From assembly GCF_000764305.2 (NCBI RefSeq), contig NW_025947373.1, positions 1 to 64,000 of the forward strand: a DNA stretch of 64,000 bases, in the 5' to 3' direction. The position numbers and the translations under genes are program-made. Shown here in pieces: positions 44,112 through 47,668 of the stretch; positions within the stretch are counted from its first letter, which is position 1, and each line of letters begins with the position of its first letter. The stretch comes from Hyalella azteca. Taxonomy: Eukaryota; Arthropoda; Malacostraca; Amphipoda; Hyalellidae. Under the pieces are notes generated by a model. That model did no database searches. It worked only from the letters and a program-made list of their open reading frames with translations, and was not told the origin of the DNA.

Positions 44112-44991
44112 TCATGTCTGGGGCATATGTAGTAAAGGATTGTTTAACAGAAAATTTTTAAATATTTCCCTCACATCCACAGCATCGTTTGCCAGCCTTC
44201 CAACCTGATGTACAGGATTCTGTTCTTCAATCCCTGAGTTAACAGTCTCAGTTAGATGATGTTCAATTCCTTCCTTGTCTATGATTGTGTTATGCAGTAC
44301 ACATATGCATTTTACAATGCTATCAATAACTTCAACTTTGGTATCAATACATGTCGCTAATAAACGCCATTTACTGAATATTATTCCAAATGCACATTCA
44401 ATGGTTTTCCGACATCTTGACAAACATTGGTTGAAGGTTATATCTTCAATAGTTAGGTTATGCCCTCCATATGGTTTTAGCAAAAATGGCATTAGTGGGT
44501 ATGCTTCGTCCCCCACAAGTACGTATGGTACTTTGACTGCTGTATTTGGTAGGAAGGCCGGCTCAGGAATATCCAAATTTCTATATTTCAAAGCCTCGGA
44601 AAGCTCCGAGGCTTGGAATGTTCCGCCATCACTTTGTTTGCCAAAACCTCCTATGTCTATGAAAACGAATTTGTAGTTAGCATCAGCCACTGCTTGAAGG
44701 ACAATGGAGTAAAACTGTTTGTAGTTGTAATACATAGATCCTGAATTGCTTGGACATTTAACACGTATGTGTTTATCATCTATTGAGCCAATGCAATTAG
44801 GAAAGTTCCAAATTTTGTAGAAATCTTCAGCAATTTTTCTGAAACATTCCTTTGTGGGTACTGGCATGTGTTGCTCATGCAGTTCTTCCCACAATGCCCC
44901 AACAGTTTCTGAAACAATCTTACTAACTGTAGACACCCCCACTCGAAATGAAAATGAAAGGGTATGAAATGATGCCCCAGTGGCCAGATAT
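44112..44991 (-). CDS. HARBI1-like: Gene B, exon 4: Harbinger DDE transposase core
   Basis: The acceptor TTTGCAG precedes 44991. The first base completes the arginine split with exon 3 (LR|YLATGASFHTLSFSFRVG). The exon encodes an intact PIF/Harbinger nuclease domain. The catalytic residues, numbered in the 513-aa chimera, are D292 (IGSIDDKHIR), D382 (VLVGDEAYPL) and E419 (KTIECAFGIIFSKWRLL). It ends at a stop near 44112 without any frameshift. Members cut and move DNA; the vertebrate HARBI1 is a domesticated relative. It lies wholly inside the intron of the opposite-strand MADF gene. Confidence 0.92.
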
Positions 44992-45124
44992 CTGCAAAGA
45001 AGATAAAAAGTTTTGTTAGTATTGGTGTTATCATTTTTCATTGTACTGTATAGCTATGTGTGTATTAAAAGCATGAAATATTATATGACTTTTGCTAACA
45101 ATCCCTCATTGTTTGTCTTTACAG

Positions 45125-45928
45125 GAACGCAGATAAGAAAGAAATAGCAGTATCTGAGAGACCAATTTTCCATTGAGTTTGGCAAAATGAAACCACCCTG
45201 ATCAAGAGATGCAGCAGATAATAAAGTCTCATCAAAATGAAAGCATTTTACACAGCTACAATTCTTGAAAAATGTTGTTAGACCAAGATCATCTAGTGGA
45301 AATTTGTCACACTTGGTTAACGATCATGCAAGTGAAACCTCGCCACCGACAATGGGTGAAGTAGAATGTGAAACTGGTGACATGGAGGGAGCTGAAAACT
45401 TGCCCACAGATGAAGGAGATTGCTTAGCCTCTTCATCTAATAGTAATGCAAAAGCTGTCATGGGTGAAATTTTGCAAGGACCAACTTTAATGAGCACTCT
45501 GTCTGGTCAGCAAAAAAAAAGGAAAAAAATGAAAGAAGGTATCTCCAGCAGAACAATTTAATGAAAGCCTGTTGAATATTGAACAGCAGAAAGTGCAAAA
45601 TTTGAAGAAAAAGATGGAGCGCATGCAAGAGGGAGAGGATGATGACCTATTGTTCTGGAAAAGTTTATTGCCACATAATAAAACAATTCCTACAGCTCAG
45701 AAGCTTTCATTCCGAAATTGTGTACAAGACGTTGTTCAACGATTTGCATATTCACAACATTCCATGAATTACCCTCAAAATAATTTTGGATATTACTCCA
45801 CATGTAGTACACCTGCTCCACAAATATCCCCTATCTCTGCTTGCACAGACGGTCAAATGTTGTTAGAGGGATTTGGATTTGCAACCATTGTAGTATGCTT
45901 ATCATCAGGTATGAAACAATGTTGCTAA
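45125..45928 (+). pseudogene. Harbinger MADF/BESS protein, exon 2, broken
   Basis: After acceptor TTTACAG the phase fits exon 1. The frame reads TQIRKK-stop-QYLRDQFSIEFGKMKPP, with in-frame stops where MADF domains have Trp or Arg (three: at about 45146, 45201 and 45239). Then it is open from 45265 to 45561, and a +1 shift in an A-rich run (about 45510-45535) leads to MNIEQQKVQNLKKKMERM. A BESS-like motif (DDLLFWKSLLP) ends the protein. All three stops look like single transitions. The exon lies inside the transposase intron. Confidence 0.82.
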
Positions 45929-46193
45929 AAAACAATCTTATATTTTAATATTTGAAGGATTGACGATGTTATTTTGAAAAATATTTCATTAATATTATTA
46001 AAGTGCAAAGTTATGCACATTGAATTATGAGTTACTAAAAACACATTGTTTCATTTTATTAAATTGGTCCTATACTCTACACCTTAAGCAGTAAAATTTC
46101 CAAGTAAAAAACTATAACAGCTACTTGCTGTTTATTAATAACCTCAGCACATTAATATTAATATTAAGTTTATGTTATTTCATACTTTCTCAC

Positions 46194-46621
46194 CTAAGAG
46201 TTATAATAAGCCGTTCTTCAGGTTGAATAGGTTGTTGATGCAAGTTGCACCACTGTTTCACAAGTCGATGTTCAACTCTCTTCAGAATGTAGTTGAAGGT
46301 CTCTTGTGTCATCCTTGCGTATGCAAAAAAACGTGATTTGTCATTTTTGAGATCTCTGAAAAGATGATGGTACTCTCCCAAGTCTTTCCTCCTCCTATTA
46401 ATGTCATGCACTGGCATTCGTTTCCTTTTAACTTTTGGAAGGATGCTGTCTAGCAGCAAATAATCCTCGTCAGACGAGGAGCTCTCCATCATATATGTTC
46501 TTGCTCTGTATACTTGCCTCTCCTGAGGCTCAGGTGGTTCACGGATTGAGTCTCTGCAGGCCCGCCGTTTGCACCCAGCGTCGCCAGCAGCTGATGCCAG
46601 GGCTGACACATCAGCATCCTT
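46194..46621 (-). CDS. Gene B, exon 3: chimeric junction of host leader and Harbinger transposase
   Basis: The acceptor ATCATCAG precedes 46621, in phase 0 as in gene C. It first encodes the host leader KDADVSALASAAGDAG...PEPQERQVYRAR, nearly the same as gene C, then passes without a break into MMESSSSDEDYLLL, KRKRMPVHDINRRR, and FFAYARMTQETFNYI of the transposase. It ends with donor AG|GTGAG after 46194. The junction is near 46497. Adding exons 1, 2 and 4 gives 1542 nt, i.e. 513 aa, with all phases consistent. The transposase may also be translated alone from the MM, so fusion at the protein level is inference. Confidence 0.85.
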
Positions 46622-46632
46622 CTGATGATAAA

Positions 46633-46979
46633 ATTACATACCTTGTATCAGAGTATAACGTAGCTTATATCACAGTATGACATAGCCTATATCAAGGTAA
46701 GACATAGCTTATATCAAGGTAAGACATAGCTTATATCAAGGTACAACATAGCTTATATCACAGTATAACATAGCTTATATCACAGTATGACATAGCATAT
46801 ATCAAGGTAAGACATAGCTTATATCAAGGTAAGACATAGCTTATATCAAGGTAAGACATAGCTTATATCAAGGTAAGACATAGCTTATATCAAGGTAAGA
46901 CATAGCTTATATCAAGGTAAGACATAGCTTATATCAAGGTAAGACATAGCTTATATCAAGGTAAGACATGGCTTATATC
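46633..46979. repeat. 22-bp tandem repeat in intron 2 of gene B
   Basis: About 15 copies of CATAGCTTATATCAAGGTAA plus GA. The array runs directly into the adapter sequence at 46980, so its true length is unknown. Confidence 0.92.
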
Positions 46980-47017
46980 CTGTCTCTTATACACATCTAG
47001 ATGTGTATAAGAGACAG
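46980..47017. other. Nextera mate-pair junction adapter (sequencing artefact)
   Basis: CTGTCTCTTATACACATCT followed by AGATGTGTATAAGAGACAG: two Tn5 mosaic ends head to head, the circularisation junction of Nextera mate-pair libraries. It replaces about 90 bp present at the same place in gene C (58763-58835). It is not part of the organism's genome. Confidence 0.97.
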
Positions 47018-47131
47018 GTGCATACCCTATCAAAACAAATGTCAGCTCCCTCTATTTCCCAGCTTTCCAGAAATTCATTGCAAAAATTTATACATACACT
47101 ATTAAAAAATTTTAATTTTTAATGAAAGTAC

Positions 47132-47253
47132 CTGAGAACCATATGGAAATGGTTCCTCCTTCACAGTTACATCCGAGTTCTCATTTTCAGGCTCCTGCTT
47201 GATGTAGATTTCAGGGACTTGGATGACTGGATTGGGAGTATCCATGTCCAAGG
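47132..47253 (-). CDS. Gene B, exon 2
   Basis: 122 nt; acceptor TTCCAG, donor CAG|GTAC. It encodes LDMDTPNPVIQVPEIYIKQE then PENENSDVTVKEEPFPYG. Same length, phase and psi-K-x-E motifs as in genes A and C. Confidence 0.75.
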
Positions 47254-47556
47254 CTGGAAATCAAGTATTTTGTTTTACCATTGCCATTTCAGCAAAGTAC
47301 AAAACATCATACATCAGCATTTATGAATTCTCAATCAACAAACAAGCCTGGGTATTGTTGTAAAAAGAGCTCAATAATACTTAGGTTTTATAGATTTAAA
47401 CACGTTAAGTGCGGCTATTTCATATTTCATACTGGTGGTAGTCATGCATACAGGGCTGAATGAAATAATTGGCAAATATTGAAAACGTACCAAAAATCTA
47501 AGCCAAATGATTCGGATGTTATAGACATTGACGTGTAACACAAAGAAAAAGCTTAC

Positions 47557-47668
47557 CTTTGGACTCAACTTTGATTGCACAAGCAGGCATCAGGGGCAGG
47601 TTGTGCTCCAAACTCTCATCACTCCTGACATAGGAATGGACAGGGCATTCTTTGGTGTTGGACGCCAT
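47557..47668 (-). CDS. Gene B, exon 1 (start)
   Basis: ATG at 47668; MASNTKECPVHSYVRSDESL, ending in IKVESK with donor G|GTAAGC. 112 nt as in the other copies. If the assembly is right, this promoter now drives the Harbinger transposase fusion. Confidence 0.75.

What the first reader, a model, noticed from the sequence alone, without database searches (positions are those of the whole stretch)
44112..47668. Chimeric gene: unknown host gene spliced in frame to a complete Harbinger transposase
Seen directly: exon 3 of gene B is split by a Harbinger insertion, and its 5' half continues without a stop into the transposase. All four exons keep canonical GT-AG sites and compatible phases (112 + 122 + 428 + 880 nt = 514 codons), and the DDE triad is intact at D292, D382 and E419. 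Known: fusions of host domains to transposases have repeatedly founded new genes, and HARBI1 is a domesticated member of this superfamily. Inferred: the host promoter and its psi-K-x-E-rich N-terminus now drive a DDE nuclease.
Basis: partly seen in the sequence, partly recalled or inferred. Interest (0 to 1): 0.95.

Follow-up and report, generated by a model that had tools for sequence, protein, structure and literature searches.

The report
Host gene fused to flipped transposase
In a freshwater amphipod, a jumping gene landed inside a host gene and its body was flipped over, so that host protein sequence now runs in frame into the jumping enzyme, and the pattern of mutations suggests, without proving it, that this hybrid protein is being kept by selection.

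Summary
The fusion frame is real: four GT-AG exons, 1,542 nt, 513 aa, DDE at D292/D382/E419. It is already an NCBI predicted model, "protein ALP1-like isoform X1", Hyalella azteca.

Two things were missed. First, the element is inverted: its 5' end (43194-43341) lies at the far host junction, abutting its own 3' end. In free copies that block sits directly before the transposase start codon. The 3' end now touches a TTA, the element's target, at that start codon. Single-ended auto-integration plus end joining explains this in one event. Second, a 38-bp mate-pair adapter sits in intron 2 (46980-47017), one of 5,585 in the assembly. The exon 1-2 link therefore rests on colinear paralogs.

Selection: at 250 of 393 transposase codons, substitutions private to this copy are 9 synonymous and 4 nonsynonymous, against 12 and 37 in five dead copies (Fisher p=0.006). 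Part of this may predate insertion.

Best reading: a young host-transposase fusion gene, probably DNA-binding; a near-invariant glycine beside D292 is lost. Transcription and orthologs are untested. Many related copies remain, so it is not an established domesticated gene.

The parts
47557..47668 (-). Exon 1 of fusion, host gene B (starts ATG)
   Evidence: matches copy C 59409-59520 and copy A 22160-22271
47132..47253 (-). Exon 2 of fusion, host psi-K-x-E module (IYIKQEPENENSDVTVKEEP)
   Evidence: related module matched at several dozen other places in the genome, followed by C2H2 zinc fingers in L053 and possibly in L055
46980..47017 (.). 38-bp mate-pair circularisation adapter inside intron 2: assembly artefact; copy C has about 90 bp of intron at this place
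46636..46979 (.). 22-bp tandem array in intron 2, also present beside exon 3 of copies A and C
46493..46621 (-). Exon 3, host part, ending ...QVYRARTY at the fusion point
46194..46492 (-). Exon 3, transposase part; first codons ATGATG at 46492-46487 (M122, M123)
44992..46193 (-). Intron 3, contains most of the antisense second gene of the element
45130..45928 (+). Remains of the element's MADF/BESS gene, second exon (BESS motif E 1e-4); three in-frame stops and one 1-nt shift relative to the open frame of free copy C3601
44112..44991 (-). Exon 4, transposase DDE domain to stop
43345..43391 (+). Harbinger 3' terminal inverted repeat region (GGGTGCGCATACAGTG...), read inwards on +
43342..43344 (+). 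TTA between displaced 5' block and 3' TIR; equals the internal TTA/TAA at the transposase start codon of free copies
43194..43341 (+). Harbinger 5' terminal block (5' TIR plus leader), on the wrong side of the element body
43191..43193 (+). TTA at left host junction, read as target-site copy
42755..43190 (-). Cut-off 3' half of host exon 3, broken (four 1-bp deletions, one TGA)

Best explanation
A two-gene PIF/Harbinger element inserted at a TTA/TAA site in exon 3 of one of three copies, in this window, of a gene found so far only in this amphipod, with its transposase antisense to the gene. Later its 3' end was cut free alone and attacked the TTA at the element's own transposase start codon. 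That flipped the body, and the freed start-codon end was sealed to the upstream host exon (single-ended auto-integration plus end joining; inferred from the joints). This placed transposase M1 in frame behind 121 host residues. The product has a host N-terminus predicted disordered with three psi-K-x-E motifs, the transposase helix-turn-helix, and a DDE domain whose first catalytic Asp is followed by D instead of the near-invariant G. The element should no longer move by its own two ends. The fusion protein has since been kept by purifying selection, most likely as a DNA-binding factor rather than a working transposase (inferred). Steps shown: sequence, inversion geometry, substitution pattern. 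Steps inferred: transposase-driven mechanism, transcription, that the selection acted after the fusion, function.
For: Open 513-aa frame with canonical introns, identical to an NCBI model. Three free copies (C3298, C2168, and C4871 whose block matches only in its inner part) carry the 5' block directly before T(T/A)A-TGATGG; in the window that block abuts TTA and the 3' TIR, and the joint GGAGTG-TTA-GGGTGCGC occurs in no other held locus. Free copy C2922 has both ends flanked by TTA. Transposase substitutions private to this copy: 9 synonymous, 4 nonsynonymous on 160 S and 590 N sites, i.e. 250 of 393 codons; the rest had fewer than two controls. Binomial against neutral 2.8e-4; Fisher against the five free copies (12 S, 37 N) p=0.0062, and each of five leave-one-out tests p<0.01. 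Nonsynonymous 4/590 against 46/1089 in the element's noncoding and MADF sequence, p=7e-6. The second gene is broken in the window and open in C3601. Host exons 1-3: 4 of 266 N sites changed against 40 of 790 noncoding, one-sided p=0.006. The cut-off half carries 5 indel events in 434 sites against 4 in 790 noncoding sites of the same branch (p=0.29), as expected if it has been free for much of that branch.
Against: No RNA evidence was available; the NCBI name says only that a model exists. An adapter interrupts intron 2. Part of the private branch may predate insertion, when the element itself was under selection. Nonsynonymous counts do not date the break of the host half: 13 of 350 in copy B, but also 11 of 350 in unbroken copy C (p=0.84); only the few indels do. 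Host N-terminal constraint is weak: against the cut-off half p=0.077, and copy C shows 0 synonymous and 6 nonsynonymous changes there. Total change in the MADF pieces (11/294) against the transposase (13/754) is p=0.064. Pairwise dN/dS of the window with single copies is 0.22 to 0.58, less extreme. Free copy C3601 keeps its MADF/BESS exon open while its transposase is broken, so one gene can stay open by chance. The changes at 293 and 410 could be early decay. The lesion test is biased, since the finding was chosen for its open frame.
Confidence: 0.5

Rival explanations
1. A recent, still-open but functionless fusion frame. The low nonsynonymous count was laid down while the element was an active transposon before it landed here; the fusion is an ORF that has not yet decayed.
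For: Window-specific substitutions cannot be split into before and after insertion; transposases of active lineages evolve under selection (general knowledge); a free copy shows that one of the two genes can stay open while the other breaks; two near-invariant residues are changed; nonsynonymous change in the cut-off host half is no higher than in intact copy C (13 and 11 of 350).
Against: The cut-off host half has at least as many indels per site as noncoding sequence of the same branch (5/434 against 4/790) and a TGA, so it has been broken for a while. The element's MADF pieces changed at 11 of 294 sites, near the element's noncoding rate of 35 of 795, and carry four lesions, although both proteins are reported to be needed for movement (PMC9710019, passage).
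Confidence: 0.31
2. Exons 1-2 do not belong to this exon 3: the scaffold was joined through an untrimmed mate-pair adapter, and the real gene is something else (for example a transposase read from its own ATG, or an exon 1-2 block from a collapsed further copy).
For: Exact 38-bp circularisation adapter at 46980-47017, 5,585 such in the assembly, an identical published adapter; about 90 bp of intron present in copy C is missing here.
Against: Copy C has the same order exon 1, exon 2, 22-bp array, exon 3. Matches to exon 1 in the genome search were the three copies on this contig (132 of 206 candidates scored), and C2613 carries a fourth of its own, so no spare exon 1-2 block was seen. The host::transposase join itself lies within exon 3 and has no adapter.
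Confidence: 0.12
3. Nested insertion: a second Harbinger entered the TTA of a first one, and a deletion then removed the second element's 5' end, the first element's body and the host flank, leaving the same joint.
For: Nested short copies of this family exist, e.g. C1661; the family is multi-copy.
Against: Needs two events, and a deletion that ends within 1-2 nt of the start codon TTA boundary; the C1661 nesting is at another place and does not share the joint.
Confidence: 0.07

Closest known systems
Host-transposase fusion (HTF) genes of tetrapods (Cosby et al. 2021; recalled, and mentioned in passages of PMC10799329, and PMC8700633)
   Same: Host N-terminal sequence joined in frame to a DNA-transposon transposase; candidate purifying selection; DNA-binding part kept
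   Different: Here the join is at DNA level inside one exon, made by inversion of the element, not by splicing into a downstream element (splicing route recalled); amphipod; N-terminus is a psi-K-x-E module shared with zinc-finger genes, not KRAB
Domesticated PIF/Harbinger genes (HARBI1, recalled; ALP1/ALP2, start of abstract of PMC7282668 in listings; insect PLG genes, passages of PMC9710019)
   Same: PIF/Harbinger transposase frame under apparent purifying selection, no working pair of ends
   Different: Fused to a host gene; MADF partner broken, not co-domesticated; many related copies still in the genome; no orthologs tested
SETMAR/Metnase (starts of abstracts of PMC4198141 and PMC8327481 in the listing)
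   Same: Host domain plus transposase whose ends are dispersed in the genome as possible binding sites
   Different: mariner family, SET domain
Auto-integration and single-ended transposition products of Sleeping Beauty and piggyBac (passages of PMC3952818)
   Same: Auto-integration gives inversion products; in piggyBac a single freed end inserted at a target site inside the transposon
   Different: Those were plasmid assays and other superfamilies; here a natural Harbinger copy

Membership tests
PIF/Harbinger element | DDE_Tnp_4 transposase with D, D, E triad | tested here: met
   Pfam E 1.3e-27; D292, D382, E419
PIF/Harbinger element | Second gene with MADF/Myb-like protein | tested here: met
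   Free copy C3601: MADF_DNA_bdg 2.7e-7 and 1.5e-4 on two exons, BESS 2e-8; window remnant BESS 1e-4
PIF/Harbinger element | TIRs and 3-bp TWA target-site duplication | tested here: met
   C2922 copy: TTA-GGGTACG...CGCACCC-TTA; in the window the ends are rearranged
Host-transposase fusion gene | One open frame made of host-derived and transposase-derived coding sequence | tested here: met
Host-transposase fusion gene | Transcribed and spliced as one mRNA | not testable with these tools
   Only an NCBI predicted model named isoform X1; no reads
Host-transposase fusion gene | Purifying selection on the fused frame after fusion | tested here: inconclusive
   Transposase part constrained on its private branch, but before and after insertion not fully separable; host part weaker; one genome only
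Domesticated PIF/Harbinger gene (criteria of PMC9710019) | Syntenic orthologs in distant species | not testable with these tools
   G000 has no relatives held
Domesticated PIF/Harbinger gene (criteria of PMC9710019) | Loss of TIR/TSD hallmarks | tested here: met
   No TIR at 46493; the 5' TIR lies at the far side, so the body is not flanked by a pair; the TIR sequences themselves remain
[quoted passage not shown]
   103 matching stretches, the window's own and others on 37 further contigs; 40 of 737 candidates scored
Single-ended auto-integration product | Freed TIR joined to a target site inside the element, body inverted | tested here: met
   that transposase did it is inference

The most novel reading that the evidence does not exclude
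A transposon's own failed jump created a new host gene in one step. Single-ended auto-integration flipped an antisense Harbinger into frame with a host exon, fusing a psi-K-x-E (SUMO-site-like) module, shared with amphipod zinc-finger genes, to a Harbinger DNA-binding and DDE domain. The fusion was then retained as a regulator that can bind the dispersed relatives of the same element as a ready-made network of sites.
Probability: 0.2. Interest if true: 0.85.

Novelty: new variant of a known kind. Interest (0 to 1): 0.6.

Why it matters
Host-transposase fusions are usually seen long after birth, with the birth event erased (general knowledge). Here the birth joints are still readable: uninterrupted paralogs in the same window, free copies of the element, and a cut-off host half that records decay. 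If the fusion is transcribed, it is a young host-transposase fusion gene outside vertebrates, made by element inversion rather than by splicing. It makes a testable claim that a suicidal transposition product can be the raw material of domestication. Separately, 5,585 retained mate-pair adapters in this assembly warn that joins and gene models in it need checking.

Tried and rejected
Simple insertion with read-through: rejected, because no TIR lies at the host/transposase joint and the 5' block is at the other end. Assembly flip through inverted repeats: rejected by inference, because the breakpoints lie outside the repeats and neither joint holds N or adapter; no reads could be checked. C1661 as a precedent for the same nested joint: rejected after reading it. 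Extra exon of paralog models P0122 and P0123 lost at the adapter: not supported; the exon is at 21299-21204 for copy A and was not found in copies B and C. Identity of gene B: no Pfam family, three Hyalella proteins only, helical C-terminus at pLDDT about 80, no PDB fold match at E<=0.001. Fusion model: residues 1-136 below pLDDT 50, transposase core mostly above 90; no PDB sequence match at E<=0.01; best fold match a piggyBac strand-transfer complex, E 0.058, weak. Other proteins with the fusion N-terminus, lengths about 283-898: only P0001 and P0122. Papers: listings (12 of 48 shown; 12 of 65; 8 of 1,035; 8 of 597; 6 of 29) showed none on an amphipod fusion or on adapters in this assembly; this is a shallow search. 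The Hyalella genome paper was not held under the DOI tried.

My early note on the MADF/BESS lesions wrote three TGA; by the alignment they are one TAG and two TGA.
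Full report
What is there. The window is contig C4787:1-64000 of a 518,993,365-base assembly. An exact 100% match of the fusion protein to an NCBI model names the species, Hyalella azteca, an amphipod. The model P0001, "protein ALP1-like isoform X1", is the same 513 residues, so the fusion frame as such is already in a database. I found no description of it as a fusion, in a shallow search (listings). The next hits (120 of 408 listed) are transposases; the best, from beetles, cover 74-75% of the query. 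In an alignment with the 119 other listed hits, no more than 6 of 119 rows place a residue over any host position after residue 3.

The host gene. The window holds three copies of gene B on the minus strand: A (22271-11062), B (the finding) and C (59520-57876), found by self-comparison and translated in full. A fourth lies on contig C2613. A search of 5.8 billion proteins with copy C gave three proteins, all Hyalella. Exon 2 carries a psi-K-x-E module; the first 80 residues of the fusion hold three such motifs against a shuffle mean of 0.18. Related modules match at several dozen other places in the genome. Of three loci fetched for the module alone, one (L053) is followed by a frame with eight C2H2 stretches, one (L055) by a frame with a sub-threshold zinc-finger hit, and one (L054) by no such frame, but only about 2.5 kb downstream were read there. 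The C-terminal part is predicted helical (residues 121-269, pLDDT about 80), with no Pfam match and no PDB fold match at E<=0.001.

The element is inverted. A DNA search of the whole genome with the inserted stretch found three free copies with the transposase start: C3298, C2168 and C4871. In each, the terminal block equal to window 43194-43341 (in C4871 only its inner part) is followed directly by T(T/A)A and TGATGGAGAGC, the transposase start. A fourth free copy, C2922, has both ends, TTA-GGGTACG... and ...CGCACCC-TTA, and an internal deletion. In the window the order on + is: host, TTA (43191-43193), 5' block (43194-43341), TTA (43342-43344), 3' TIR (from 43345), body, transposase ATG (46492-46490), host exon 3. 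So the 5' end of the element is at the far side, pressed against its own 3' end, and no TIR stands at the fusion joint. A single inversion explains both joints. One breakpoint is exactly at the 3' TIR end and the other at a TTA, the target of this superfamily, at the start codon. That is the trace expected of single-ended auto-integration. Inversion products of auto-integration, and single-ended events for piggyBac, were seen in plasmid assays (passages of PMC3952818). That a transposase did it here is inference. Before the flip, the transposase would have been antisense to gene B. The related copy at C2613 reads CAGAGCCAGAAAATATG at this place and the window reads CAGAGCAAGAACATATATGATGG, so host sequence runs to within a base or two of the start codon. 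The joint GGAGTG-TTA-GGGTGCGC occurs in no other locus held.

An assembly artefact in intron 2. Positions 46980-47017 are an exact 38-bp palindrome that one paper gives as its circularisation adapter for about 4-kb fragments (PMC7357533, passage). I recall it as the Nextera mate-pair junction. The genome assembly contains it at 5,585 places, against 0 for the reversed control pattern. In copy C about 90 bp of intron stand at this place. Exons 1-2 and exon 3 of copy B are thus joined across an artefact. In favour of the join: copy C has the same order including the 22-bp array, and no spare exon 1-2 block was seen among 132 scored of 206 candidates. The host-to-transposase join itself is inside exon 3 and is free of adapter.

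Is the fusion kept by selection? Five free copies served as controls: C3601, C2922, C3298, C2168 and C4871. Each covers only part of the coding sequence (272 to 880 of 1,179 nt). Counting was possible at 250 of 393 codons, those covered by at least two controls (160 synonymous and 590 nonsynonymous sites). Substitutions private to the window copy are 9 synonymous and 4 nonsynonymous; those private to the five free copies are 12 and 37. Fisher p=0.0062; binomial against neutral 2.8e-4; leaving out any one control keeps p below 0.01. Pairwise dN/dS of the window with each control is 0.22 to 0.58, that between controls 0.62 to 1.31. Noncoding and MADF sequence of the same element changed at 46 of 1,089 sites, against 4 of 590 nonsynonymous (p=7e-6) and 9 of 160 synonymous sites (no difference). 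Total change in the MADF pieces (11 of 294) against the transposase (13 of 754) is only p=0.064. The antisense MADF/BESS exon has three in-frame stops and a 1-nt shift; the open copy in C3601 lacks them and scores as MADF and BESS in Pfam. Both proteins are reported to be needed for movement of such elements (PMC9710019, passage).

Timing and its limits. The cut-off host half (43190-42755) has four frame-breaking 1-bp deletions, a 3-bp deletion and a TGA. Its indels (5 in 434 sites) are at least as dense as in noncoding sequence of the same branch (4 in 790; p=0.29), as expected if it has been free for much of the time since copies B and C split. Its nonsynonymous changes (13 of 350) do not date it, since intact copy C has 11 of 350 (p=0.84). 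Host exons 1-3 of copy B changed at 4 of 266 nonsynonymous sites (p=0.006 against noncoding; p=0.077 against the cut-off half), but copy C has 0 synonymous and 6 nonsynonymous changes there, so the N-terminus is not tightly held. C3601 shows the mirror case, an open MADF/BESS exon beside a broken transposase. My lesion-count test is biased by how the finding was chosen, and I give it little weight. Selection on the element before it landed here remains the main rival.

What it most likely does. In an alignment with 119 relatives, the fusion deviates at 2 of 64 strongly conserved columns: D293 (G in 117 of 119), next to catalytic D292, and C410 (R in 109 of 119). The helix-turn-helix is kept (HTH_Tnp_4, 8.7e-7). 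The transposase core is predicted with confidence, while residues 1-136 are below pLDDT 50. I read it as a DNA-binding protein with a host N-terminal tail, catalysis probably weakened. Possible targets are relatives of the same element, found on 37 other contigs with 40 scored of 737 candidates. SETMAR, which targets its own transposon ends (abstract start of PMC8327481 in the listing), is the closest working analogy. This function is inference.

Verdict. It works like a host-transposase fusion gene. It cannot be filed as an established domesticated PIF/Harbinger gene: synteny in other species could not be tested, and absence of related copies was tested and not met. The new elements are the inversion origin and a selection signal within one genome.

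Noticed in passing
whole assembly G000; window 46980-47017: The public assembly holds 5,585 exact 38-bp mate-pair circularisation adapters, each a possible false or altered join.
   Followed up: partly
7158-9017 (-): Open 619-aa piggyBac-type transposase frame, stop to stop (DDE_Tnp_1_7, E 9.6e-69).
   Followed up: no
window 42755-43190, 11062-11628, 57876-58451; contigs C3660, C1677, C756, C4376 and others: The helical C-terminal domain of gene B has many relatives in this genome, several at 35-45% identity, with no Pfam match above cut-off or PDB fold match.
   Followed up: partly
L053 (C4007) 6921-8159 and 9920-9997; L055 (C4457) 7188-7292 and 9323-10000: The psi-K-x-E module of exon 2 also precedes C2H2 zinc-finger frames (clear in L053, sub-threshold in L055), suggesting a shared N-terminal module.
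   Followed up: partly
21204-21299 (-): Copy A has a 96-nt exon between exons 2 and 3 used by NCBI model P0122 and not found in copies B or C.
   Followed up: partly
L061 (C1661:2450-3550) and the 37 contigs: Short, sometimes nested copies of this Harbinger's ends, MITE-like, are common.
   Followed up: partly
36458-38426 (-): Overlapping frames that look like a non-LTR reverse transcriptase (by eye).
   Followed up: no
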